Source: Streptomyces sp. SID13726 (lineage in GTDB: Bacteria; Actinomycetota; Actinomycetes; Streptomycetales; Streptomycetaceae). Taken from it: 64,000 bases of DNA. This document shows positions 5,559 to 18,426 of this stretch, one piece after another. Position 1 is the stretch's first letter; every line of letters begins with the position of its first letter. The notes under the pieces are model-generated. The model searched no databases. It had not been told where the DNA came from and saw only the letters and a program-made list of their open reading frames with translations. Made by a program: the position numbers and the translations under genes. The stretch spans positions 806,001-870,000 of the forward strand of contig NZ_JAAGLY010000003.1 in NCBI RefSeq assembly GCF_010548375.1. Reading direction: 5' to 3'.

Positions 5559-6599
5559 ATGGGAAGCGGGGGACGACTCGTCGGGGCCACCGGGGCGGCC
5601 GGGCGGCTGCGGCTGTTCGCGCTGTCCGGCATCGTCACCGTCCTCGTCACCCGCGCGTTCCTCGCGCTGACGGGCTATCCCCGGCTGGGCGGCGCGGGCG
5701 GCCGGCTGCACATCGCGCACATGCTGTGGGGTGGTCTGCTGATGATGGCCGCGACCCTCCTCGCGCTCGGACTGCTCGGGCGCCCGGTCCGGTCGGCCTG
5801 CGCGGTCGTGGGAGGCGTGGGCTTCGGGCTCTTCATCGACGAGGTCGGCAAGCAGGTCACCGACGAGCCCGGGTACTTCTACCGCCCGGCCGCGGGCATC
5901 ATCTACGCCACCTTCGCCGCGCTCCTGGTCCTGACCCGCCTGCTGCGCCACCGTGCCCCGCTCACCGCGGAGCAGCGCAGCGCCCGCGCCGCCGACCTGG
6001 CGCTCACCGGAGTCACCTCGGGACTCGACGAAGAGCGGCGACAGGCGGCCCTGAGGCTGGTCGAGGGCTCGGAGCGGCCGGTCGACGAGGCGCTGGTCCG
6101 GCTGCTGAGGACCCTGCCCGAGCGGCGCCCGAGTGCCGTGCGGCGCCGCCGTGCCGGGATCGACCGGGTCACCGCGCTGCTCCGACGCGCCGCGCGGCAC
6201 CGGCTGGTGCTCGCGCTGAGCGTGCTGTGCGTCCTGACCGAGGCGGTTCTGTTCACGCTGTGGCTAACCCTGGGCGCGCTGGACGGCGAGCTGGCGCGGG
6301 AACCGCAGCGCGGGGCCCTGGTCGGTGTCCTGGTGAGCTCCCTCGTCGCGACCGTCCTCGGGGCCGCCGGGCTGGTGAGGCTGCGCACCGACCGGGCGGC
6401 CGCTCTCCGGCTGGTGCGGGCGGCGCTGCTGGCGGACATCCTGGTCGGCCAGATATTCAAGTTCACGATCAACCAGTTCGCCTCGGTGACCGAGCTGGCC
6501 TTCGACCTGTGCGTGCTGTGGGTGATCTCCGTCTCCGCGACCGGCCCGGCCCCGGCGGGGCGAGACCGGCGCGGAGACCCCCTCATACCGGCCTACTGA
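5559..6599 (+). CDS. multi-pass membrane protein, function unknown
   Basis: A 346-aa protein; the ATG is chosen for the GGGAG site 5 nt upstream (a longer frame from 5496 lacks one). The N-terminal half has about four membrane helices, with the conserved-looking stretches FLALTGYPRLGG, HIAHMLWGGLLMMAA and GFGLFIDEVGKQVT. A soluble, charged segment (roughly residues 140-205) is followed by three or more further helices. The family occurs widely in actinobacteria without an assigned role. The His/Trp/Asp-Glu-containing helices could form an ion or proton path, but this is conjecture. It converges on the saccharopine dehydrogenase gene and overlaps it by 7 bp. Confidence 0.75.
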   Translation: MGSGGRLVGATGAAGRLRLFALSGIVTVLVTRAFLALTGYPRLGGAGGRLHIAHMLWGGLLMMAATLLALGLLGRPVRSACAVVGGVGFGLFIDEVGKQVTDEPGYFYRPAAGIIYATFAALLVLTRLLRHRAPLTAEQRSARAADLALTGVTSGLDEERRQAALRLVEGSERPVDEALVRLLRTLPERRPSAVRRRRAGIDRVTALLRRAARHRLVLALSVLCVLTEAVLFTLWLTLGALDGELAREPQRGALVGVLVSSLVATVLGAAGLVRLRTDRAAALRLVRAALLADILVGQIFKFTINQFASVTELAFDLCVLWVISVSATGPAPAGRDRRGDPLIPAY

Positions 6600-7759
6600 T
6601 CGATCCGGAGGGTGAAGTGCAGGCCGTCCCGGGCGAGTTCGCCCAGCCACTGCTCGGAGCGGGCGGCGGTCTCGGCGGCGCGGTTCAGGCCCGCCGGGAG
6701 GGAGCCGTCCAGGATGTGCCCGATGCCGAGGGCGAGGGTGCGGGAGACACAGCGGGCCATGGCGCTGTCCTCGTCGTCGCCCACCAGGTCCAGGAGGTAG
6801 CCGCCCGACCAGGTCCGGCCGTCCTGCGCGCGCACGTCGAGGGAGACGGCGAGGACGACCCGGTCGCGGTCGGACTCCGTCGTCGGATACCTGGCCGCCA
6901 ACTCCTGGGCCAGGGCGGCGATCCGGGTGTCGTCGCCGTTCCTCAGCTCCTCGAAGACCGGCTCCCAGGCCCGCAGCCAGCCGTCCAGGCGCAGGGTGCC
7001 GCGGACGAAGGTCTGCGGGGTCCAGGCGGGCGGCAGTCCGTACTGCTCGACGAAGGGGACGCTGTCGCGGTTGGGGTAGGCCTCGAAGGTCTCGCCGTCC
7101 ACGTCGTGGCGCCGGGTCGCCTCCCAGGGGCGGTCGGCGGTGGTGGGGGTGCCGCCCTCAAGGTAACGGGCGGGTGAGCGCAGGGCGTTGAGGACCCCGA
7201 GCGGGGCCCAGCTGAAGCGGTACCTGAAGTCGTTCGGCACGGCGGGGACTCCGCCGCAGTAGGAGGTGAGACGGTACGACGCCGGTGCGGCCTCGCCGAT
7301 CGCCGCGCGGGCCCTGGCCACCAGGCTGTGGGCGAAGAGGTGGTCGATGCCCGGGTCGAGACCGGCCTCGGTGAGGACGACGATCCCGGCCTTCTGGGCC
7401 TCGGGGACCTGCTCGACGACCGCGTCGGACACATAGCTGGAGCAGGCGAAGTGGGCCTGCTCCCGTACGCAGGCGGCGAGGATCCCGGCGTGCTCGGGTG
7501 CGGGCAGCATCGACACGACGACGTCGCCGGGCGCGAGTTCGGCGGCGAGCGCGGACAGTGTGTAGGCGCGGGGCTCGGCCCGGCCGGTGAGTCCCAGTGC
7601 GGCGAGGGCCTGTGCCGCGCGCTCCTCGGTGCGGTGCCACAGCCGTACCCGGTCGGCGGTGTCGCACAGCCGCTCCAGGCCGGTGCCGGTGGAGAGTCCG
7701 GCGCCGATCCAGTGGACGGTCCCGGTCGCGGGTACGGCGTCGGGCGTGACGTCAGACAT
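6593..7759 (-). CDS. saccharopine dehydrogenase, glutamate-forming type (Lys9-like)
   Basis: A 388-aa NAD(P)-dependent enzyme. Residues ~13-25 (VHWIGAGLSTGTG) form the Rossmann loop, and LTEAGLDPGIDHLFAH is the family's substrate-domain signature. Lys9-type enzymes interconvert saccharopine with alpha-aminoadipate semialdehyde plus glutamate. The ATG at 7759 starts MSDVTPD and overlaps the upstream gene's stop by 8 bp, so the two are translationally coupled. It is the last gene of the run 11628-6593. Next to a Lys1-like partner it probably acts in the saccharopine route of lysine metabolism. The direction (degradation or synthesis) and the exact substrate (an opine is possible) are inference. 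Confidence 0.85.
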   Translation of the reverse strand: MSDVTPDAVPATGTVHWIGAGLSTGTGLERLCDTADRVRLWHRTEERAAQALAALGLTGRAEPRAYTLSALAAELAPGDVVVSMLPAPEHAGILAACVREQAHFACSSYVSDAVVEQVPEAQKAGIVVLTEAGLDPGIDHLFAHSLVARARAAIGEAAPASYRLTSYCGGVPAVPNDFRYRFSWAPLGVLNALRSPARYLEGGTPTTADRPWEATRRHDVDGETFEAYPNRDSVPFVEQYGLPPAWTPQTFVRGTLRLDGWLRAWEPVFEELRNGDDTRIAALAQELAARYPTTESDRDRVVLAVSLDVRAQDGRTWSGGYLLDLVGDDEDSAMARCVSRTLALGIGHILDGSLPAGLNRAAETAARSEQWLGELARDGLHFTLRIDQ

Positions 7760-8813
7760 GGCGGAACTCCCCTTCCTCGATGCCGAGTTCACGGCAGGCC
7801 TGGCGGTACCGGTCCAGGCAGCGCCCCCAGGCCCCGGCGATCCCGAACTCCAGCAGCTGGGGCAGCAGCGCCGCCGAGAAGTCGGTGCTGGACTCGAGGG
7901 GCAGCAGGGACGGCAGGTTGTCGATGGCGATGAGGTCGAGAGGGGGTTCCTTGTGCAGCCGGCGTACGGGGTCGGTCCACTCGGTGGTGCGGTCGTAGAC
8001 CGGCAGGACGTTCAGCGGGGAGCCGACGTCGCAGGTGACGTCGGAGAGGGTGCGCAGCCGGCGGGCGGGGACGTCCAGGTCCTCGTCGCGGACGAAGGGC
8101 GGGACGGGGGTGGTGGCCAGGACGCAGTTCACCAGCAGGTCGTGGGCGAGCAGTGCGGGGCGGTCCAGGTCGCGGGTCTCCGCCAGGTCCCAGCACGTGG
8201 GCTCGCCCCCGGCGGCGTGCAGCGCGACGCGGGCGCCGCGACCGCTGCGGCCCAGGGCCCCGATCACCAGCGCCGTGAAGTCCTCGTCCCCGGCGACGGG
8301 CCGCAGCAGGGCCTCCAGTTCCTTCTGCGAGGTGGGGGTGAGCGGCGCGTCCAGCCTGCCCCGGTGCTGGAGGACGGCGAGGGCCGCGCCCAGATAGCCG
8401 GCCCAGTACCCGAACGCGGCGAGCCTGCGGCCCTGGTCGTCCACCAGGTACTCCAGGTCGAGGAGGGCTCCTCCCCCGGCGGCGAACCGGCCCAGCAGGG
8501 CGCGGGCGCCGGGCTGCTCCTTGTAGGCGTGCCCGAAGAAGACATGACGGTTCGTCAGGGTCGCGGGGGCGTCGGGGAGTTCCTTCAGACCGACGATCAC
8601 GGCGTCCCGCGGCGCCGACACCCAGGAACGTCCGGGTGCGACCGCGCAGCCGACCGTCTCGTACTCCTCGATCGGGAAGATCCGCTGTGGGGACTCCTCG
8701 ACGGTCAGCCGCACCCCGCTGTCGACGAGCCGCCGGGCGTCGGACGGCACGATCGGGGTGCGTCGTTCGGTGGAGCGGACCTCGTGGCGCAGCCACAGAT
8801 GGAGTTCGGTCAT
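7752..8813 (-). CDS. saccharopine dehydrogenase, lysine-forming type (Lys1-like)
   Basis: A 353-aa member of the alanine dehydrogenase/PNT-like family of Lys1 enzymes, which join lysine and 2-oxoglutarate into saccharopine or the reverse. Family signatures are clear: LRHEVRSTERRTPIVP at the N-terminus, the catalytic lysine in VGLKELPD, the catalytic His in FFGHAYKEQ, then GGGALLDLEYLVDDQGRR and AFGYWAGYLG. The start MTELHLW at 8813 gives an ATGA overlap with the FAD oxidase stop. The length fits the fungal and bacterial Lys1 family (~350-370). Bacterial Lys1 plus Lys9 pairs are uncommon; the alpha-aminoadipate route is best known from fungi. No TM or secretion signal. Confidence 0.88.
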   Translation of the reverse strand: MTELHLWLRHEVRSTERRTPIVPSDARRLVDSGVRLTVEESPQRIFPIEEYETVGCAVAPGRSWVSAPRDAVIVGLKELPDAPATLTNRHVFFGHAYKEQPGARALLGRFAAGGGALLDLEYLVDDQGRRLAAFGYWAGYLGAALAVLQHRGRLDAPLTPTSQKELEALLRPVAGDEDFTALVIGALGRSGRGARVALHAAGGEPTCWDLAETRDLDRPALLAHDLLVNCVLATTPVPPFVRDEDLDVPARRLRTLSDVTCDVGSPLNVLPVYDRTTEWTDPVRRLHKEPPLDLIAIDNLPSLLPLESSTDFSAALLPQLLEFGIAGAWGRCLDRYRQACRELGIEEGEFRHV

Positions 8814-9955
8814 ACGCGGTTGGCCTCCGGGCGCGGGGCGTCGGCCGCGAACCGGCCGGCGCTCAAGGGGCTGACGTCCACGAAGGGTACGCGGCCCAGG
8901 TAGAGGTCGCGGACGACTTCGCCGACGGCCGGGCCCTGGAGGAAACCATGGCCGGAAAAGCCGGTGGCGTAGAGGAAGCGGGAGACCGAAGTGGCCTCGC
9001 CGATCAGGGCGTTGTGGTCGGGGGTGTTCTCGTACAGGCCGGCCCAGCCGCCGGTGCGGCGCAGGTCGAGGAGGCCGGGGGCGCGGTGCCGCATGGCCTC
9101 GGCGAGGCGGGGGATCCAGCGGTCGTGGGTGTCGGTGGCGAAGCCGGGCCGTTCGTCGGGGTCGGACATGCCGACGAGGAGTCCGGGGCCCTCGGCGTGG
9201 AAGTAGAGGCTGGTGGTGAAGTCGATGGTCATGGGCAGGTCCGGTGGCAGTCCGTGGACCGGTTCGGTGACCGCGATCTGGCGGCGCAGCGGCGACACCG
9301 GCAGGTCCACGCCGACCATCGCGCCGACAGCCTTCGACCAGGCGCCGGCCGCGCAGATCACCGTGTCGGTGGCGATCCGGCCGATGGTGGTCGCCACGGC
9401 GGTGATGCGGTCGCCGTGCAGTTCGATGCCGGTGACGTCGGTGTGGCGTAATATCCGCGCGCCGTGGGCACGGGCGGCGCTCGCGTAGCCCTGGACGACG
9501 GACTCGGGGGTGCAGTGGCCGTCGTCCGGCGAGTAGGCGGCGGCGAGCAGCCCGTCGGTGCTGATGAGCGGGGAGAGCGTGCGGGCCTCGGCCGGGTCGA
9601 TCATGCGGCTGGGTACGCCGAGGGCGTTCTGGACCCGCACGCTCCGCTCGAAGGAGGCCACCTCCTCCGGCGTCGACAGGAGGAACAGATAGCCGACCCG
9701 GTGCAGTCCGATGTCGTGTCCGGTCTCCTCCTGGAACCGGGCGAAGGCCTCCAGACTGCGGGCCCCGAGCTGGATGTTGACCTCGTCGGAGAACTGCGCG
9801 CGCACCCCGCCCGCGGCCTTGGAGGTGGATCCCGAGGCGAGTTCGTCCCGCTCGACCAGTACGACGTCTCTCACCCCGGCCCGCGCCAGGTGGAAGGCGA
9901 TGCTGGTGCCCATGACCCCGCCACCGATCACGACGGCTCCGGCCTGGTTGTTCAT
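8810..9955 (-). CDS. FAD-dependent amine/imino-acid oxidase (DAO / sarcosine oxidase beta-like)
   Basis: A 381-aa flavoprotein of the D-amino-acid oxidase superfamily. The dinucleotide fold AVVIGGGVMGTSIAFHLARA starts at residue ~7, VVLVERDELASGSTSKAAGG is the typical second loop, and the C-terminal YATGFSGHGFLQGPAVGEVV is the FAD/substrate signature seen in sarcosine and pipecolate oxidases. It overlaps both neighbours by 4 bp (ATGA), which points to one transcript. Beside two saccharopine dehydrogenases and a ketimine-reductase-like protein, an L-pipecolate, saccharopine or other secondary-amine substrate is likely. That is inference from context, since the family covers glycine, sarcosine, proline and opine oxidation. 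Confidence 0.85.
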   Translation of the reverse strand: MNNQAGAVVIGGGVMGTSIAFHLARAGVRDVVLVERDELASGSTSKAAGGVRAQFSDEVNIQLGARSLEAFARFQEETGHDIGLHRVGYLFLLSTPEEVASFERSVRVQNALGVPSRMIDPAEARTLSPLISTDGLLAAAYSPDDGHCTPESVVQGYASAARAHGARILRHTDVTGIELHGDRITAVATTIGRIATDTVICAAGAWSKAVGAMVGVDLPVSPLRRQIAVTEPVHGLPPDLPMTIDFTTSLYFHAEGPGLLVGMSDPDERPGFATDTHDRWIPRLAEAMRHRAPGLLDLRRTGGWAGLYENTPDHNALIGEATSVSRFLYATGFSGHGFLQGPAVGEVVRDLYLGRVPFVDVSPLSAGRFAADAPRPEANRV

Positions 9956-10923
9956 CTGCGTTCCTCCTGGGCTGCCCGGACCGCGGCCCAGGCCGCTGCC
10001 GCGTCCTGGATGCCGAGGCCGACGCTGTTGTAGTGGACGATGTCGCCGGGTCCGGTCCGTGCCGTGGCCCGCCCGGTGAGTACGGCGCCGAGCCCGACGA
10101 GGTCGGATTCGGCCAGCACTCCGGCCGCGAGCGCGTCCACGACCGGCCCGGCGTGTGCGGCGGCGGCAACGGGATCGTCGACGACGACGGCCGCGGACCG
10201 CCGCAGGACCTCGGGGTCCACCTCTCGGCGGGTGGGCTCGAAGGACCCCACGCTCACCACCGTGCACCCCGGGGCCAACCACCGGCCCCGCAGCACCGGC
10301 GTCGCGCTGAGCGTGCAGGTCGCGACGAGGGTGGCCCCGGTCACCGCCGACTCGGCACTGTCGGCCGCCTCGACGGCCAGGTCCAGTTCGGCCGCGAGGG
10401 TCCGGGCGGCACGGGCCCGGTGCTCGGGGGCCGGGCTCCACAGCCGTACGGACTTCAGGTCGCGCACCCGGGCGACGGCCCGCACATGGGCCAGGGCCTG
10501 GACGCCCGAGCCCAGGACGGCCAGGTCGGTGCTGTCGGGCGTGGCCAGGGCGTCGACGGCGACGGCGCTGGCGGCGGCCGTGCGCAGGGTGGTCACCGCG
10601 GTGCCGTCCATGACGGCGGACAGGCGGCCGGTCACCGGGTCGAGGACCGACACCACGGCGTGGACCGTGGGCAGCCCGGCCGCCGCGTTGCCCGGGTTGA
10701 CGCTGCCGAACTTCGCGACGGCCCCGGAGTCGGCGGAGAGCCGGGAGACGTACGCGAAGACCACACTGTCGTCGAAGCGGCTCGGGTGCATGATCTTCGC
10801 CGGCCGGTCGGCCGTACCGGAGCCGAGGGCGGTGAAGGCGGCGCGCTGCGAGGCGATGGCCGTGTCCACGTCGAGCAGACGCGTGACCTGCTGCCCGGAG
10901 AGGAAGAGGACGTCGTCGGTCAT
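9952..10923 (-). CDS. ornithine cyclodeaminase / mu-crystallin family reductase
   Basis: A 323-aa NAD(P)-binding protein: VLGSGVQALAHVRAVARVRD is the Rossmann nucleotide loop and ADRPAKIMHP holds the substrate-carboxylate lysine. The catalytic Asp of true ornithine cyclodeaminases lies in a GDxPGKxEL-type motif. Here the equivalent is VGSFEPTRREVD, which is closer to mu-crystallin/ketimine reductases and archaeal alanine dehydrogenase. Reduction of a cyclic ketimine such as piperideine-2-carboxylate therefore seems more likely than ornithine deamination. It starts 45 bp downstream of the cyclohydrolase gene and overlaps the FAD oxidase by 4 bp, so it probably shares their transcript. Confidence 0.85.
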   Translation of the reverse strand: MTDDVLFLSGQQVTRLLDVDTAIASQRAAFTALGSGTADRPAKIMHPSRFDDSVVFAYVSRLSADSGAVAKFGSVNPGNAAAGLPTVHAVVSVLDPVTGRLSAVMDGTAVTTLRTAAASAVAVDALATPDSTDLAVLGSGVQALAHVRAVARVRDLKSVRLWSPAPEHRARAARTLAAELDLAVEAADSAESAVTGATLVATCTLSATPVLRGRWLAPGCTVVSVGSFEPTRREVDPEVLRRSAAVVVDDPVAAAAHAGPVVDALAAGVLAESDLVGLGAVLTGRATARTGPGDIVHYNSVGLGIQDAAAAWAAVRAAQEERR

Positions 10924-10968: not shown

Positions 10969-11628
10969 TCAGGACAGGTGGGCCACCGCGTCCAGGTGGG
11001 GCAGGTGGTGGTCCAGCCGCTCCCGCTTGGTGCGCAGATAGGTGATGTTGTTCTCGCACGGCGGTATCAGCAGCGGTACGGTCTCGGCGACCTCGATGCC
11101 GTGGCGGACCAGCGCCTCGCGCTTGCGCGGGTTGTTGGACATCAGACGCACCGAGTTCACGCCCAGGTCGTGGAAGATCCCGGCGGCGACGCCGTAGTCG
11201 CGGGAGTCCACGGGCAGGCCGAGCGCGAGGTTCGCCTCGACGGTGTCCAGGCCCTCCGCCTGGAGCGCCATCGCGCGCAGCTTGGCGAGCAGTCCGATGC
11301 CGCGGCCCTCGTGGCCCCGCAGGTAGACGACGATGCCGCTGCCCTCCTTGACCACGGCCCGCAGGGCGGCGTCGAGCTGGTCGCCGCACTCGCAGTGCTG
11401 GGAGCCGAACGCGTCACCGGTCAGGCACTCGGAATGCAGCCGGACGAGAACGTCTTCCGAGCCGATGTCACCGTAGACCAGGGCGACTTGTTCGTCACCG
11501 CGGTCGTGATCCAGGTATCCGACCGCCTGGAATTTGCCGTACACGGTGGGCAGCGGGGCATTCACCACGCGCTCCACACCCGTACGCTGTGGTGCCTTCT
11601 TGCCGAGTACGCCAACTTTATCTGTCAT
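10969..11628 (-). CDS. ribA: GTP cyclohydrolase II paralogue with Met120 (FAPy-forming type)
   Basis: A 219-aa stand-alone GTP cyclohydrolase II. The zinc ligands C68, C79 and C81 sit in the usual Cx10CxC, and RGHEGRGIGLL (104-114) holds the catalytic region. At residue 120 the sequence reads KLRAMALQ, where canonical enzymes (E. coli KIRAYALQ) have Tyr. From memory, the S. coelicolor paralogue SCO6655 has this same Met120 and releases the formylated pyrimidine FAPy instead of deformylating it. This gene is therefore likely dedicated to a secondary pathway, not riboflavin. It is separated by only 38 bp from the divergent creatininase-family gene and is followed at 45 bp by the mu-crystallin gene. 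An AGGAA ribosome site precedes the ATG. Confidence 0.93.
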   Translation of the reverse strand: MTDKVGVLGKKAPQRTGVERVVNAPLPTVYGKFQAVGYLDHDRGDEQVALVYGDIGSEDVLVRLHSECLTGDAFGSQHCECGDQLDAALRAVVKEGSGIVVYLRGHEGRGIGLLAKLRAMALQAEGLDTVEANLALGLPVDSRDYGVAAGIFHDLGVNSVRLMSNNPRKREALVRHGIEVAETVPLLIPPCENNITYLRTKRERLDHHLPHLDAVAHLS

Positions 11629-11666
11629 GATCTGGTTCCTAAGCAGAGACGAAAGGCCGTGAAAAG

Positions 11667-12419
11667 ATGAGTGGTTCGGGAATACGGTCGGCGGCGTACG
11701 GTCTGTTGCCGACGGACACTACGGAAGACGTACGGACCCGGGGCGCGGGCGTCTCAACACAGGTCGCCGTCCTTCCGGTCGGGAGCTTCGAACAGCACGG
11801 CCCGTACCTCCCGTTGGCGACCGACACACTCGTCGCCTGTGCCGTCGCGCGTGAGATCGCCGCGGCGTACCCGGTGCACCTCCTCCCCCCGGTGACGATC
11901 TCCTGTTCGCACGAGCACGCGGCCTGGGCGGGGACCGTCAGCATCTCCTCCGTCACCCTTCACTCGGTGGTACGGGACATTGCGGCCTCGCTGCGCCGCT
12001 CGGGCGTCGAGGCCCTGGTGGTGGTCAACGGACACGGCGGGAACTACGTGCTGGGCAACGTCGTCCAGGAGGCCTCCGCCCGCGGTGAGCGGATGGCGCT
12101 CTTCCCGGCCGCGGAGGACTGGGAGGCCGCCCGTACGGAGGCCGGGGTGGCCACCTCGCTGCTCACCGACATGCATGCGGGAGAAATCGAGACCTCCATT
12201 CTTCTGCACGCCCACCCGGAATACGTCCGGCCCGGTTACGAGACCTCCGATTTCGTCGCGGACGACCGTCGTCATCTCCTCACCCTCGGTATGTCCGGTT
12301 ACACCGATTCCGGTGTCATCGGGCGCCCTTCGCTGGGCTCTGCGGAAAAAGGGAAAGCGTTGCTGGAGAGCCTCTCGGCTTCCTTCGGAGCGTATTTCTC
12401 GATGCTCACGGAAGGGTAG
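11667..12419 (+). CDS. creatininase-family amidohydrolase, candidate FAPy deformylase
   Basis: A 250-aa metal-dependent hydrolase of the creatininase family. Metal ligands are visible at E42 and H44 (SFEQHGPYLPL), D53 (ATDT), H123 (NGHGGN) and E173 (DMHAGEIE). The same family includes archaeal ArfB, which removes the formyl group from FAPy, and mycofactocin MftE. Because the divergent neighbour is a FAPy-type GTP cyclohydrolase, deformylation of FAPy or of a later intermediate is the leading hypothesis. The intergenic gap of 38 bp leaves no room for a riboswitch. The last 121 bp overlap, in antisense, the coding end of the membrane protein gene at 12299-13783. No secretion signal. Confidence 0.88.
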   Translation: MSGSGIRSAAYGLLPTDTTEDVRTRGAGVSTQVAVLPVGSFEQHGPYLPLATDTLVACAVAREIAAAYPVHLLPPVTISCSHEHAAWAGTVSISSVTLHSVVRDIAASLRRSGVEALVVVNGHGGNYVLGNVVQEASARGERMALFPAAEDWEAARTEAGVATSLLTDMHAGEIETSILLHAHPEYVRPGYETSDFVADDRRHLLTLGMSGYTDSGVIGRPSLGSAEKGKALLESLSASFGAYFSMLTEG

Positions 12420-13783
12420 GACTTCGCCGGGCGCAGTCCCTGGTACCAGCGCACGACCAGGACGACCGCGCCCGGCAGGCTCGCCACGAAGCTGAGCACG
12501 CCGTAGACGATCGCGGTCGCGAGACCGGCCTCGGCGCCGAGGCCCATCGCGGCGAACGCCCAGGCGGTGACGCCCTCCCGGGGGCCGAACCCGCCGATGT
12601 TCAGGGGCAGTCCCATGGCGAGCAGGGCGAGCACCGCGAGCGGCAGCAGTACGGCGACGGAGGCGCCGGAGCCCGCGATGCGGGCGGCGAGGACGAACAT
12701 CCCGAGGTGGCCGGCGAGGACGAGGGCCGAGGAGAGCGTGACGCCGGGCCAGTTGCGGCGGGACAGCAGCGCCTCGCGGGCCTCGGCGAGTGTCGAGCGC
12801 AGGGCCCGGCCGCGGCGGGAGGGGGCCCGGTTCATGCGCAGGGCGACGACGACGGCGAGGGCGCCCAGGGCCGCGAGGCCGACGAGGGGTGCCAGGTGGC
12901 GGGCCTCGGTCAGCACCGGGGACGGCATGGTGAGCAGCACGGCACCGCCGACGATCGCCAACGCGATCTGTCCGGCGGCGCGTTCGAGGACGACGGCCCG
13001 GACACCGCGGCCCATGTCACCGGCGCTCTGTCCGTGCCGCACCGCGCGGTGCACGTCGCCGAGGACGCCGCCGGGCAGGGCCGCGTTCAGGAACAGGGCG
13101 CGGTAGTAGTCGGCCACGGCGGCGCCGAGCGGCAGCCGGATGCGCAGGCCGCGGGCCACCAACTGCCAGCGCCAGGCGCTGAACACGGTGGTCAGCACGC
13201 CGATCGCGAGCGACGCGAGCAGGGCGGTCCCGTCGATCCTGCGCAGGCCGTCCAGGAAGACGCCGGTGCCGAGCCGCCACAGCAGGACGGCGAGGATGGT
13301 GACGCCGGCGACGGTGCCGAAGTGGGTGCGCAGGGCGCGGGAGTTGAGGATCGCGCGCAGGGCGGTGCGCCCGCGGGGCGGTCGTGCGGGGCCGGGCCTG
13401 ACCGTGGTCACGATGACGCCGATCCGGTCGTGGGAGACGGCGGCCTCGGTGAGGTCGAGGACGGGGTGTCCGGCGGCTTCCAGCACCTCGGCCCGGGCGA
13501 CGATGGCGTCGGTCCGTGCCGTGAGCACGTCGTCCCGGGTCCGGACCACCTCGGCCTGGAGCGCGAGGGCCCGGTGGGTGACCAGGACCGGTCGCGCCGG
13601 GTCCGCGGGGCGCCGTACGGGCAGGTTCGCCCGGCCGCGCTCGACGCTCCGGACGGGCAGCAGCGCCCGCTCGCCCGGCTCGGCGTCACCGTTCTCCGCG
13701 AGGCCGTCACGCCGCTCGGTACCGGACCGCGACCCGGTGCCGGGCCGCAGCCCGGTGTCGGACCGCACCGTCTCCACGCTCAT
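12299..13783 (-). CDS. UPF0104/AglD-like membrane protein (LPG-synthase transmembrane family)
   Basis: A 494-aa protein. Residues 1-150 are polar and Arg/Asp-rich (cytoplasmic). Then come about eight helices, e.g. VAGVTILAVLLWRLG, LLASLAIGVLTTVFSAWRW and VAVLLPLAVLALLAMGLPLN. The motifs SAWRWQLVARGL and LPLNIGGFGPREG are typical of the MprF/AglD transmembrane domain, which flips lipids or lipid-linked sugars. The aminoacyl-transferase half of MprF is absent. It is coupled (ATGA) to the methyltransferase upstream. In this cluster it may translocate the lipid- or sugar-linked product. The final 40 codons run antisense to the creatininase gene; the tail after WYQGLRPAK has no clear family match and may be dispensable. 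Confidence 0.82.
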   Translation of the reverse strand: MSVETVRSDTGLRPGTGSRSGTERRDGLAENGDAEPGERALLPVRSVERGRANLPVRRPADPARPVLVTHRALALQAEVVRTRDDVLTARTDAIVARAEVLEAAGHPVLDLTEAAVSHDRIGVIVTTVRPGPARPPRGRTALRAILNSRALRTHFGTVAGVTILAVLLWRLGTGVFLDGLRRIDGTALLASLAIGVLTTVFSAWRWQLVARGLRIRLPLGAAVADYYRALFLNAALPGGVLGDVHRAVRHGQSAGDMGRGVRAVVLERAAGQIALAIVGGAVLLTMPSPVLTEARHLAPLVGLAALGALAVVVALRMNRAPSRRGRALRSTLAEAREALLSRRNWPGVTLSSALVLAGHLGMFVLAARIAGSGASVAVLLPLAVLALLAMGLPLNIGGFGPREGVTAWAFAAMGLGAEAGLATAIVYGVLSFVASLPGAVVLVVRWYQGLRPAKSYPSVSIEKYAPKEAERLSSNAFPFSAEPSEGRPMTPESV

Positions 13784-14864
13784 GACGCCCCGCCCGTCGG
13801 CCGGGACAGCGCCAGCAGGTCGCTGTGGTGGACGACCACCTTCAGCTCGCCCGCGCGGCAGGCCTCCAGCCGGTCCTGGAGGTAGCGCTCGGCGCGCTCC
13901 TTCAGCTCGGGGCGCTCCTCGACGGCCGCGCCGACCCAGCCGCGCAGCCACTGGGCGGTGAGCGCGGACTCGGCGGGGCCCAGGCGCCAGGCGCTCGGGT
14001 GCAGCCGTACCGTCGCGCCGCGCTCCGAGAACGCCTCGCAGGCGACGGTGACGGCGTCCGGGCCGAGCAGTCCGCCGCGCCGCTGGTGGGCGTTGAAGGC
14101 GTCGGCGATCTCGTCGTCCAGCGGGTCGGCCGGGGTGAGTTCGACGCGTCCGGCGACCGACAGCGTGAGCAGGGCCGGGCAGCCGGCCCCGGTGCAGGCG
14201 GCGGCGAGGGTGTCGATCTCCTCGCGGGTGAGGACGTCCAGGAGCGCGGAGGCCGTCACCAGCGAGGCGCCGGCGAGGGCGTCCGGGGTGAGCAGGCCGA
14301 CGTCGCCGCGGCGGGTCTCGACGGTGACGCGGCTGCCGTCGGCGGCGGAGCGCGGGGAGGCGACGGCCGCGAAGTGCAGGAGGTAGGGGTCCCGGTCGTG
14401 CAGGATCCAGTGCTGGGGGCCGTCCAGGCGGGGCGCGAGCCAGCGGCCCATGGAGCCGGTGCCGCAGCCCAGGTCGTGGATGACGAGTCCGGCCTTGCCG
14501 GGCAGGTTGGCCAGCCGGATGCGCAGCGGGTCGATCAGATCGCCGGCCCGCGCCGCCGCGTCGGGCCCCTCGCGCAGCTCCAGCCACTCGGGGGCGTACC
14601 GGGGAGCGTCGTCGGGGCCTGCGTCCCTGAGGCGTACGGTGGGCCGCTCGCCGGGGCGGGCACTGGGGCCGGCACCGGGAATGACCGATTCTGCATCGGC
14701 GCCCGCGGCTGAGGTCGTCACCAACTGAGCCTCACCCGCGACCGCCGCCTTCGCACCCTGGGCCTCCGCCAACGTGGTCACCACTTTCTGTGCCCCGGCC
14801 GACGGCACCTCCCGCGGCCCCGGCTGGGCCGGGATCTTCCCGCTCTGCTTGGTCGCCGTCTTCC

Positions 14865-14868
<4 letters not shown>
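13780..14868 (-). CDS. class I SAM-dependent methyltransferase
   Basis: A 362-aa protein. The first ~95 residues are low-complexity (Ala/Gly/Pro) and probably disordered. The Rossmann core begins with the SAM loop VIHDLGCGTGSMGRWLAP (motif I at 132-138), followed by the acidic residue in ILHDRDPYLL and LVTASALLDVLT. The start (ATG 14868) gives an ATGA overlap with the glycosyltransferase stop, and the stop overlaps the membrane protein start. Acceptor substrate unknown. Its place between a glycosyltransferase and a flippase-like protein suggests methylation of a sugar or lipid-linked intermediate, which is inference. Confidence 0.85.
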
Positions 14869-16555
<1,687 letters not shown>

Positions 16556-16560
16556 TCAGG

Positions 16561-17541
16561 TCAGGCGCTCTTGTCGTACCTCACGCGGTGACAGAGGGCC
16601 GCGATCTCCCCACTGGCGAGCTGTGGCATCACCTTCGGCAGTTCCTCGAACGCGCTTTCCCCCGTGACGAGGGCGTCGAGCGCCGGGTCGGCGAGCAGCT
16701 TCAGTGCGAGGGCCAGCCGGTCGCCGTAGCCGCGGCTCGCGCGGGCCGGGGAGACGGTGCCGACCTGGCTGCTGCGGATCGTCAGGCGCCGGGAGTGGAA
16801 GGCCTCGCCGAGCGGCAGGGCGACACGGCGGTCGCCGTACCAGCTCAGTTCGACGACCGTGCCCTCGGCCCTGAGGAGTTCCAGGGAGCGGGTGAGGCCC
16901 TGTTCGGTGGCGCTGGCGTGGACGACGAGGTCGCAGTCGCCGAGGGCGTCCGCGGGGGAAGCGAAGTCGACGCCGAGCGCCTCGGCGGTCGTGGCGCGGG
17001 CCGGGTCGGCGTCCACCAGCTGGACCCGCACACCGGGGAAGCGGGCGAGGAGCGCGGCGACCGAGCTGCCGACCATGCCGCCGCCGACCACCGCGATCCG
17101 GTCGCCGATCAGCGGGGCGGCGTCCCAGAGGGCGTTGACGGCGGTCTCGACGGTGCCGGCGAGGACGGCCCGGGCGGCGGGCACGTCGTCCGGTACGACC
17201 GTCACGGCGCTCGCCGGGACTACGTACCGCGTCTGATGCGGGTACAGACAGAAGACGGTCCTGCCCTTCAGCGCGGCGGGGCCCTCCTCGACCAGCCCCA
17301 CGCTGAGGTAGCCGTACTTCACCGGCGCCGGGAAGTCGCCCTGCTGGAAGGGGGCCCGCATGACGGAGTGCTGGTTCTCGGGCACCCCGCCGCGGAACAC
17401 GAGTGTCTCCGTGCCACGGCTGACCCCGGAGTACAGCGAACGGACCAGGACCTCGTCCTCGCGGGGGGCCGGAAGGGTGACGTCCCGTATCTCTCCTTCA
17501 CCCGGAGAGCGGAGCCAGAACGCACGTGCGGCGGGCTTCAT
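16561..17541 (-). CDS. MDR-family zinc-type alcohol dehydrogenase-like protein
   Basis: A 326-aa medium-chain dehydrogenase/reductase. The N-terminal barrel has the family's [21 protein letters not shown] and a Rossmann loop [21 protein letters not shown] at about 147-167. The structural-zinc Cys cluster is absent, and the catalytic Cys position reads YSGVSRG rather than C-G-x-C. A strong AGGAGGT ribosome site precedes the ATG. It lies 116 bp upstream of the PTPS homologue on the same strand and divergent from the CDP-alcohol phosphatidyltransferase. Likely an NAD(P)H-dependent oxidation or reduction step on a sugar-like or alcohol intermediate in this cluster. Substrate unknown. Confidence 0.85.
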
Positions 17542-17649
17542 CGAGAACCTCCTGAACGATCGGGAACTCGTTCACGTACCGAGATGTGCACAGGTCGCGC
17601 ACAGTACGCGGCCTTGATCGACTCTGTCATCTGGCCGGAGGAATGTGCG

Positions 17650-18426
17650 GTGGCCCTGAACAACACTTACGAAGCAAGGCTGGTCCAGCAGGAGACCGCG
17701 GTGGGAGCGGGTCTGCAGATCCTGTTGCTGGCCCTGCTCGGCACGGCGATCGGCATGGGGCCGGCGGGGTGGCTGACCGGCCTCGCCTTCGCCGTCGCCA
17801 CGTGGGCGGTGCTCTCCCGGGCGCTGCACCGCACCCGGCCGCGCTCCTTCGGCCCGGCCAACCGGGTGACCCTCGGCCGGGCGACCCTGGTCGGCGGAGT
17901 GACGGCCCTGGTGGCGGACTCCTTCCAGGACTCCCCGCCGGTGACGCTGTTCGTGGGTCTGACGGCGGTGGCGCTGATCCTCGACGGCGTGGACGGCAAG
18001 GTCGCCCGCGCCACCAACACCTCGACCCCGCTGGGCGCGCGGTTCGACATGGAGGTCGACGCGTTCCTGATCCTGGTGCTCAGCGTGTACGTGTCGATGT
18101 CGCAGGGCCCGTGGGTGCTGCTGATCGGCGCGATGCGCTACGGCTTCGTCGCCGCAGCCCGCGTCTGGAACTGGCTCAACGCCCCGCTGCCGCCGAGCAT
18201 GGCCCGCAAGACGGTGGCCGCGCTCCAGGGCATCCTGCTGCTGGTGGCCGCGTCCGGGTACCTGCCGCACACGGCGACCTTCGGGGTGGTGGCCCTGGCC
18301 CTGGCCACGCTGGTCTGGTCGTTCGGCCGGGACATCCTGTGGCTGTGGCGCACGCACCGGGCCGACCAGGCGGCGGTGGAGGAGCTGCTGGAGCTGATGC
18401 CGGCACCGCAGGCGGTGGCTTCCTGA
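17650..18426 (+). CDS. CDP-alcohol phosphatidyltransferase family membrane enzyme
   Basis: A 258-aa integral membrane protein. The GTG at 17650 is chosen for the GGAGG site 8 nt upstream; no ATG is better placed. The CDP-OH-P motif is complete, reading DG-x2-AR-x8-G-x3-D-x3-D inside DGKVARATNTSTPLGARFD plus the following MEVD. These residues bind CDP-lipid and two metal ions. About six helices surround it. The family moves a phosphatidyl or similar phosphoryl-alcohol group from CDP-activated donors to alcohols (inositol phosphate, glycerol-P and others). Divergent from the MDR dehydrogenase and probably part of the same pathway, where it would attach or build a phospho-alcohol moiety. The acceptor is unknown. 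Confidence 0.88.
   Translation: MALNNTYEARLVQQETAVGAGLQILLLALLGTAIGMGPAGWLTGLAFAVATWAVLSRALHRTRPRSFGPANRVTLGRATLVGGVTALVADSFQDSPPVTLFVGLTAVALILDGVDGKVARATNTSTPLGARFDMEVDAFLILVLSVYVSMSQGPWVLLIGAMRYGFVAAARVWNWLNAPLPPSMARKTVAALQGILLLVAASGYLPHTATFGVVALALATLVWSFGRDILWLWRTHRADQAAVEELLELMPAPQAVAS

What the first reader, a model, noticed from the sequence alone, without database searches (positions are those of the whole stretch)
10969..18426. Uncharacterised cluster: FAPy enzyme, amidohydrolase, PTPS-like protein, GT4, methyltransferase, flippase-like protein, CDP-alcohol transferase
The genes for a pyrimidine/pterin-like precursor sit beside genes for glycosylation, methylation, a CDP-alcohol transfer and membrane translocation, with ATGA coupling in the minus-strand run. 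A lipid- or phospho-alcohol-linked pyrimidine/pterin-type product would use every step. No known pathway with this set is familiar to me.
Basis: inference. Interest (0 to 1): 0.8.

Follow-up and report, generated by a model that had tools for sequence, protein, structure and literature searches.

The report
Conserved uncharacterised pyrimidine/pterin biosynthesis gene cluster
A Streptomyces genome carries an eight-gene set, conserved as a unit in many bacteria and on some plasmids, that appears to convert GTP into a modified pyrimidine or pterin compound whose structure and role are unknown.

Summary
The cluster is real. F is nearly identical to S. coelicolor SCO6650 (PDB 3d7j). F, G and H occur in the same 22 of 61 genus genomes. 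At least 6 of 7 core genes lie near F in 93 of 113 loci outside the Arthrobacter-like group. Similar sets lie on proteobacterial plasmids.

New evidence: in all 67 loci that hold both, the creatininase accompanies a GTP cyclohydrolase without the residue matching E. coli Tyr105; of 28 loci with the cyclohydrolase but no creatininase, 26 keep Tyr, and the other two have a creatininase elsewhere in the genome. On a tree this rests on only two changes. I infer GTP -> FAPy nucleotide -> diaminopyrimidine nucleotide. Many relatives add a RibD_C reductase. Later steps (oxidation/ring closure, glycosylation, methylation) are inferred. Product and role remain unknown.

The parts
10969..11628 (-). A: GTP cyclohydrolase II homologue with Met120 in place of E. 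coli RibA Tyr105; predicted to stop at the formylated pyrimidine (FAPy) nucleotide; by gene order the SCO6655 counterpart
   Evidence: PF00925 E 6.4e-66; alignment to 2bz0; residue 120
11667..12419 (+). B: creatininase-family amidohydrolase; predicted FAPy-nucleotide deformylase; its 3' end overlaps C convergently
   Evidence: PF02633 E 5e-62; occurs with Tyr-less GCH; precedent BrbF in PMC9478397
12299..13783 (-). C: LPG_synthase_TM (flippase-like) membrane protein
   Evidence: PF03706 E 2.9e-32; start ATG overlaps D stop
13780..14868 (-). D: SAM methyltransferase (homologues fused to or following GT4)
   Evidence: Methyltransf_25 E 5.5e-5, below cut-off; homologues pass the cut-off in L033 and L069; D-type part fused with GT4 in L036 and L037
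14865..16049 (-). E: GT4 glycosyltransferase (GTG start as listed; a later ATG at 15962 is possible)
   Evidence: PF00534 E 3.9e-30; PDB GT4 hits; start
16046..16444 (-). F: PTPS/QueD-fold (T-fold) protein without catalytic Cys and third Zn ligand; near-identical to SCO6650
   Evidence: 3d7j E 6.4e-79; column counts
16561..17541 (-).
   Evidence: NCBIfam bchC 49.6 bits, cut-off 291; ADH_zinc_N below cut-off; motif count
17650..18426 (+). H: CDP-alcohol phosphatidyltransferase, signature residues intact
   Evidence: PF01066 E 2.3e-14; invariant D112, D115, G116, A119, R120, G129, D133, D137 across 11 homologues

Best explanation
A conserved biosynthetic cluster that turns GTP into a glycosylated, probably methylated 2-amino-pyrimidine/pterin-type metabolite. 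A opens GTP's imidazole ring and stops at the formylated pyrimidine nucleotide (FAPy); B removes the formyl group (inferred from the pattern in relatives; strongest step). The diaminopyrimidine nucleotide is then reworked by dehydrogenase G and T-fold protein F. In relatives with a RibD_C reductase this could be reduction to the ribityl form, oxidation at C2' and ring closure to a dihydroneopterin-like pterin, a redox route to the product GTP cyclohydrolase I normally makes (inference). GT4 E adds a sugar and D a methyl group (inference from family). H and C would attach and flip a phospholipid-type anchor where present (weakest step).
For: Linkage: F, G and H in the same 22 of 61 genus genomes; 93 of 113 non-Arthrobacter-like loci hold at least 6 of 7 core genes although gene order differs; similar sets on three Rhizobiaceae plasmids. 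Steps 1-2: of 95 loci with a GCH near F, the residue at Tyr105 is not Tyr in 67 of 67 with a creatininase and is Tyr in 26 of 28 without; the two exceptions (Leu) have an intact creatininase elsewhere in their genomes. Four proteobacterial plasmid GCHs without creatininase have Tyr, and S. fungicidicus p1, with creatininase, has Met. Two other GCH-like genes of the window's genome keep Tyr. A creatininase-family FAPy deformylase is proven in Sinorhizobium (PMC9478397, abstract and passages). Pyrimidine/pterin: the reductase of relatives is a RibD_C protein of 240-280 residues in the four scanned, without the deaminase part, and F keeps the C-terminal Glu in 170 of 170 rows. Coupling of E and D: 4-bp overlap and fusions in L036 and L037.
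Against: The Tyr/creatininase link rests on two changes on the tree, too few for significance. One Tyr-type genome (Micromonospora andamanensis) has a 56% creatininase on another contig. The window's own cluster has no RibD_C and its genome no close copy at E 1e-30, so the ribityl route cannot be exactly as drawn there unless another enzyme does it. On NCBIfam the archaeal diaminopyrimidine-reductase model is the best for only one of four scanned RibD_C proteins and below its cut-off in all four. F lacks the PTPS catalytic residues, so its reaction is unknown. E matches D-inositol-3-phosphate and other GT4s better than tetrahydrobiopterin glucosyltransferase. G and F without lipid genes are seen in 36 Arthrobacter-like loci. 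No product was observed.
Confidence: 0.55

Rival explanations
1. The pyrimidine steps feed an N-ribityl or ribosyl diaminopyrimidine that stays a pyrimidine (no ring closure); G oxidises another alcohol and F only binds or isomerises the intermediate. The product is a glycosylated pyrimidine, with or without a lipid.
For: The catalytic Cys column is Ala in 165 of 170 rows and the HGH motif HGA in 157 of 170, so pterin chemistry is not assured; RibD_C-type reductases make ribityl pyrimidines (family knowledge).
Against: A pterin-binding T-fold with its Glu kept in 170 of 170 rows (the three canonical QueD rows keep it too) would be an odd choice; no direct test.
Confidence: 0.25
2. The cluster is an accessory riboflavin/F420 precursor supply that raises the diaminopyrimidine pool; the glycosyl, methyl and lipid genes are neighbours of another function.
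For: GCH II and RibD_C are riboflavin-type enzymes.
Against: No deaminase, lumazine synthase or riboflavin synthase family among the window's cluster genes and scanned flanks; the genome has two other Tyr-type GCH copies; the genes keep together across families and phyla.
Confidence: 0.07
3. A lipid or envelope modification system in which F and G make a sugar or polyol rather than a pyrimidine, and A and B serve it only indirectly.
For: GT4, CDP-alcohol transferase and flippase-like genes; GT4 resembles D-inositol-3-phosphate glycosyltransferase; sulfatase-family genes beside the cluster in L033 and three Rhizobiaceae plasmids.
Against: GCH II, with creatininase or RibD_C or both in most cases, recurs with them and shows the Tyr pattern; G and F occur without H and C nearby.
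Confidence: 0.12

Closest known systems
S. coelicolor SCO6650-SCO6655 region (SCO6650 structure 3d7j; SCO6655 FAPy-forming GCH, the latter recalled)
   Same: F is nearly identical to SCO6650; counting from F, the order F-E-D-C-B-A makes A the SCO6655 counterpart, and SCO6655 is listed as GTP cyclohydrolase II in PMC2853524 (passage); Met at the Tyr105 position as recalled for SCO6655. The S. coelicolor locus itself was not fetched.
   Different: The listings of searches (9 and 17 capped) showed no paper treating the genes as one pathway; dehydrogenase and CDP-alcohol gene, relatives, RibD_C and the Tyr/creatininase pattern are added here.
Two-step FAPy formation and deformylation: archaeal GCH III + ArfB, and Sinorhizobium BrbF
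   Same: Creatininase-family deformylase acting on the FAPy nucleotide (PMC9478397, abstract and passages).
   Different: Here the first enzyme is a GCH II without Tyr105 rather than a GCH III, and the cluster is not a riboflavin operon; B is far below the ArfB cut-off (39 against 180 bits).
Cyanobacterial pterin glycosides (tetrahydrobiopterin glucosyltransferase)
   Same: PTPS-fold protein plus GT4; E hits 9v0l weakly (E 3.4e-4); pterin glycosides mentioned in PMC13259868 (passages).
   Different: No GTP cyclohydrolase I family found in the set; dehydrogenase of another family (recalled); membrane-lipid genes present; other GT4s score better.
Toyocamycin/queuosine-type 7-deazapurine clusters (recalled)
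   Same: GTP cyclohydrolase with a PTPS/QueD homologue.
   Different: No QueE or QueC family found among the scanned cluster and flank proteins; F lacks the QueD catalytic residues.

Membership tests
FAPy-forming GTP cyclohydrolase II (SCO6655 type) | GCH II domain | tested here: met
   PF00925 E 6.4e-66
FAPy-forming GTP cyclohydrolase II (SCO6655 type) | Tyr105 equivalent replaced (Met; the link to FAPy release is recalled) | tested here: met
   Met120
FAPy-forming GTP cyclohydrolase II (SCO6655 type) | Releases FAPy nucleotide | not testable with these tools
   needs enzyme assay
FAPy deformylase (ArfB/BrbF) | Creatininase family | tested here: met
   PF02633 E 5e-62
FAPy deformylase (ArfB) | NCBIfam ArfB equivalog cut-off | tested here: not met
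   39.4 bits against 180
FAPy deformylase (BrbF) | In the BrbF clade of the creatininase tree | not tested
   BrbF sequence not fetched
Mycofactocin peptidase MftE | NCBIfam MftE equivalog cut-off | tested here: not met
   128 bits against 172
PTPS/QueD enzyme | PTPS fold family | tested here: met
   PF01242 E 8.2e-23
PTPS/QueD enzyme | Catalytic Cys and three-His zinc site (roles recalled) | tested here: not met
   Cys column is Ala and HGH is HGA in the window; QueD-like L040, L041, L072 keep Cys and HGH
PTPS/QueD enzyme | QueD equivalog cut-off | tested here: not met
   35.6 bits against 89
CDP-alcohol phosphatidyltransferase | D-x2-D-G-x2-A-R-x8-G-x3-D-x3-D signature (pattern recalled) | tested here: met
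   invariant in 11 homologues incl. window; PF01066
CDP-alcohol phosphatidyltransferase | Known acceptor subclass (PgsA, PIPS, PssA) | tested here: inconclusive
   profile hits PssA, cholinephosphotransferase and PgsA weakly; no NCBIfam hit at E 1e-5
Riboflavin operon | Deaminase, lumazine and riboflavin synthase genes | tested here: not met
   none among the scanned cluster and flank proteins
Pterin glycoside pathway | Pterin product and pterin-specific GT | not testable with these tools
   only weak GT4 similarity

The most novel reading that the evidence does not exclude
The cluster makes a membrane-anchored glycosylated pterin (or diaminopyrimidine). The pterin would be built without GTP cyclohydrolase I, by ring opening, separate deformylation, reduction of the ribosyl chain and re-oxidation at C2' by a BchC-like dehydrogenase, with ring closure on a catalytically rewired T-fold; the phosphorylated side chain would then be joined to a phosphatidyl group and flipped. 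This would be a new lipid class shared by Actinomycetota and Pseudomonadota and carried on plasmids.
Probability: 0.2. Interest if true: 0.88.

Novelty: new variant of a known kind. Interest (0 to 1): 0.66.

Why it matters
Two proteins of this region have been studied in S. coelicolor (one structure seen here in the PDB listing, one activity recalled) without, as far as I could find, a known pathway. The data here join them to six more genes, show the set keeping together across phyla and on plasmids, and give a testable first half: the GTP cyclohydrolase lacks its Tyr105 equivalent where a creatininase-family protein is present. If the later steps hold, it is a pterin or pyrimidine metabolite of unknown role in many soil actinobacteria and rhizobia, possibly a new lipid. 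One gene of the set by numbering, SCO6652, is raised about 17- to 20-fold at 48-72 h in the reproductive mycelium (log2 4.3 and 4.1; PMC3610822 Table 3, passage).

Tried and rejected
Rejected: plain riboflavin or 7-deazapurine cluster (no such partner families among the scanned proteins; two other Tyr-type GCHs in the genome). Rejected: F as a working PTPS/QueD. Rejected: RibD_C supplied by a close copy elsewhere in the window's genome (none at E 1e-30; a housekeeping RibD was not excluded). Considered and dropped: the flanking amino-acid genes and the GNAT as cluster members, because they stay with the cluster only in some genus loci. Phage and virus collections were not searched, and structure prediction was not used: it would not have fixed a substrate. 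Whether Arthrobacter-like and f18 genomes hold C, D, H or A away from the triad was not searched. Literature searches found no paper; one gave mostly unrelated papers because an author name was among the terms, and 9 and 17 listed only 20 of 109 and 40 of 315.

Errors of mine: one search searched with an out-of-frame translation of H (window:17652-18426); one search repeats it in frame with the same 22 of 61 genomes. In one search protein 8 was also out of frame, so its empty result is void; one search is the valid one (no hit at E 1e-5). In one search protein 4 (7789-8796) was a shadow frame; the true gene there was scanned. One search did not scan D and G; one search does. Alignment A3 holds the wrong-frame row and was replaced by A4. 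In one search one handle (G089) was entered by mistake for a locus number and says nothing. The tally counts creatininase only above 45% identity and within 8.5 kb of F, and loci are not independent: many come from one genus, and L111 and L126 appear to be one contig fetched twice. Its 26 Tyr rows include L040 (QueD-type PTPS, not a true member) and L116 (a far row). Dropped before the tree: loci without all of A, F, G, plus L040, plus 34 near-identical Streptomyces loci (93 to 59); L095 and L165 were set to creatininase-present by hand. Dropped before the count: 11 loci (canonical QueD, solo paralogues, truncated contigs, L116); its Arthrobacter-like group of 36 also includes L034, L111 and L112.
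Full report
WHAT IS THERE. Eight genes fill 10969-18426: A GTP cyclohydrolase II homologue (10969-11628, -), B creatininase-family hydrolase (11667-12419, +), C LPG_synthase_TM protein (12299-13783, -), D methyltransferase (13780-14868, -), E GT4 (14865-16049, -), F PTPS homologue (16046-16444, -), G dehydrogenase (16561-17541, -), H CDP-alcohol phosphatidyltransferase (17650-18426, +). F-E, E-D and D-C overlap by 4 bp. D and G reach their Pfam families only below cut-off in the window. Its PTPS matches SCO6650 of S. coelicolor (3d7j) with ten differences in 132 residues (my count on the alignment), and its eight proteins are 80-97% identical to those of the Streptomyces pseudovenezuelae locus L179, so it is a Streptomyces or very close.

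LINKAGE. F is found in 22 of 61 genus genomes (E 1e-3), G (E 1e-60) and H (E 1e-40) in the same 22. In the fetched genus loci the block H-G-F-E-D-C-B-A keeps its order while flanks change; the exceptions are two lone F paralogues (L042, L051) and contigs that end inside the block (L053, L066, L067). In the wider phylum F-type hits at E 1e-8 occur in 37 of 296 genomes (at least three of them, G062, G115 and G222, are QueD-like with the Cys) and by profile at E 1e-10 in 63 of 394 class genomes. In 160 loci examined (L033-L072, L081-L200) gene order varies, for example A-H-G-F-E-D-C in many loci of family f84. After setting 11 loci aside, 36 Arthrobacter-like loci show only G, F and mostly E (32 of 36) within 8.5 kb, and of the other 113 loci 93 hold at least 6 of 7 core genes (A, C-H); hits to partner families fall from 409 at 0-2 kb to 3 at 8-10 kb. 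No partner family occurs elsewhere in the window at E 1e-5.

ACROSS PHYLA. A protein search of plasmids finds F in 20 records at E 1e-15, of which I opened 11. The three Rhizobiaceae plasmids of Peteryoungia, Agrobacterium and Rhizobium sp. SL42 carry flippase, CDP-alcohol transferase, RibA, dehydrogenase, F, GT4, methyltransferase, RibD-family protein and cytochrome b. Thiodictyon, Methylosinus OB3b, Rhodobacteraceae SC52, Neorhizobium, Palleronia and a Microbacterium plasmid carry subsets. S. fungicidicus plasmid p1 lists seven of the eight; no gene is listed where the flippase would lie, and that gene table is incomplete. Streptomyces sp. NBC_00019 has F alone.

FIRST STEPS. E. coli RibA Tyr105 aligns with Met120 of A. 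In the 95 of 160 loci with a GCH near F, 67 have a creatininase and none of these has Tyr (53 Met, 7 His, 5 Leu, 2 Gln); 28 have none within reach: 26 have Tyr and 2 (L095, L165) Leu. The genomes of those two hold an intact creatininase, 62-63% identical, about 14 kb from F in one and some 25 kb from F in the other, where a remnant is left near the cluster. I searched 23 of the 26 Tyr-type genomes: 22 have no close creatininase (five have 35-42% hits) and one, Micromonospora andamanensis, has a 56% copy on a short contig without a GCH. Four proteobacterial plasmid GCHs have Tyr and their loci no creatininase, while S. fungicidicus p1, with creatininase, has Met. Two other GCH-like genes of the window's genome keep Tyr. 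The 26 Tyr rows include L040, whose PTPS is QueD-like, so it is not a true member. On a 59-row quick tree of F+G each trait changes twice and together; two events are too few for a test. That varied residues replace Tyr fits relaxed constraint once B exists. From recall, SCO6655, which by gene order is A's counterpart, makes FAPy; PMC2853524 lists SCO6655 as GTP cyclohydrolase II (passage). A creatininase-family protein, BrbF, deformylates the same compound in Sinorhizobium (PMC9478397, abstract and passages).

LATER STEPS. Many relatives place a RibD_C protein in the cluster: 41 of the 113 loci; by the tally, 18 of the 26 Tyr-type loci (L040 among them) and 11 of the 67 loci with B. Pfam shows the RibD_C domain alone in L033 and L069. 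On NCBIfam the archaeal 2,5-diamino-6-ribosylaminopyrimidinone-phosphate reductase model is the best hit for L033 (128 bits against a cut-off of 186); L069 (153), L048 (102) and L220 (116) score higher on the general ribD_Cterm model, which only L069 passes. No deaminase part means the 2-amino group would stay, as in pterins (inference). In the genus the L048-type protein is in 4 of 61 genomes, and the window's genome lacks it. G matches BchC best, below cut-off, and 133 of 154 counted rows have G-x-S-x-GTE. At the catalytic Cys column F-type rows have Ala in 165 of 170 (the three QueD-like rows have Cys, L116 Glu, one gap) and HGA for HGH in 157; loci of family f18 keep HGH. My chemical proposal, that reduction by RibD_C and oxidation at C2' by G equals an Amadori shift and lets F close a pterin ring, is inference. 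For the window, without RibD_C, housekeeping enzymes or direct rearrangement would be needed.

GLYCOSYL, METHYL, LIPID. E's best PDB matches are two entries called predicted glycosyltransferases (recalled as MshA), with a named D-inositol 3-phosphate glycosyltransferase at E 3.9e-14 and tetrahydrobiopterin glucosyltransferase 9v0l at 3.4e-4. In L036 and L037 GT4 and the D-type part form one frame of 641-642 residues. H keeps the CDP-alcohol signature across phyla, but its profile finds PssA, choline enzymes and PgsA at similar weak scores, so the acceptor is open. The lipid reading rests on H and C being present in 98 and 93 of 113 loci, and is weakened by the triad-only loci.

LITERATURE. The listings of nine searches (others showed only part) held no paper that treats these genes as a pathway; the library holds open-licence papers only. 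SCO6652, D's counterpart by numbering, is raised in reproductive mycelium: log2 0.8, 4.3 and 4.1 at 24, 48 and 72 h (PMC3610822, passage with Table 3).

VERDICT. The cluster is real and widespread. The two-step opening of GTP is likely (about 0.85). A pyrimidine/pterin-type glycosylated product is probable (about 0.6), and a lipid-linked one possible (about 0.35). The function in the organism is unknown.

Noticed in passing
L042 (G000:C55:5793-6188), L051, L222: Lone paralogues of F (77-89% identical) without another cluster gene nearby; the window's own genome has one.
   Followed up: partly
window 6593-10923: Amino-acid gene run next to the cluster: saccharopine dehydrogenase-like, AlaDh/PNT N-terminal-domain protein, DAO oxidase, ornithine cyclodeaminase-like; it accompanies the cluster in only some relatives.
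   Followed up: no
L036:10216-12141, L037:7894-9822: GT4 and methyltransferase fused in one frame.
   Followed up: partly
L037, L038, L039, L069, L070, L071: In these loci of family f18 a FolB (dihydroneopterin aldolase) gene (Pfam on L071's copy) and an acyltransferase gene (Pfam on L069's copy) lie near the dehydrogenase-PTPS-GT4 triad.
   Followed up: no
L033:6027-7811, L220:2472-4115, L224, L228: A sulfatase-family gene recurs near the cluster in an actinobacterium and in Rhizobiaceae; a cytochrome b gene recurs in four of the proteobacterial versions.
   Followed up: no
L165 / L217 (Nocardiopsis quinghaiensis): A creatininase remnant near the cluster and an intact copy about 22 kb from the remnant.
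   Followed up: partly
L215 (Micromonospora andamanensis, short contig): A 56% identical creatininase in a genome whose cluster has a Tyr-type cyclohydrolase; no cyclohydrolase on its 5.5-kb contig.
   Followed up: partly
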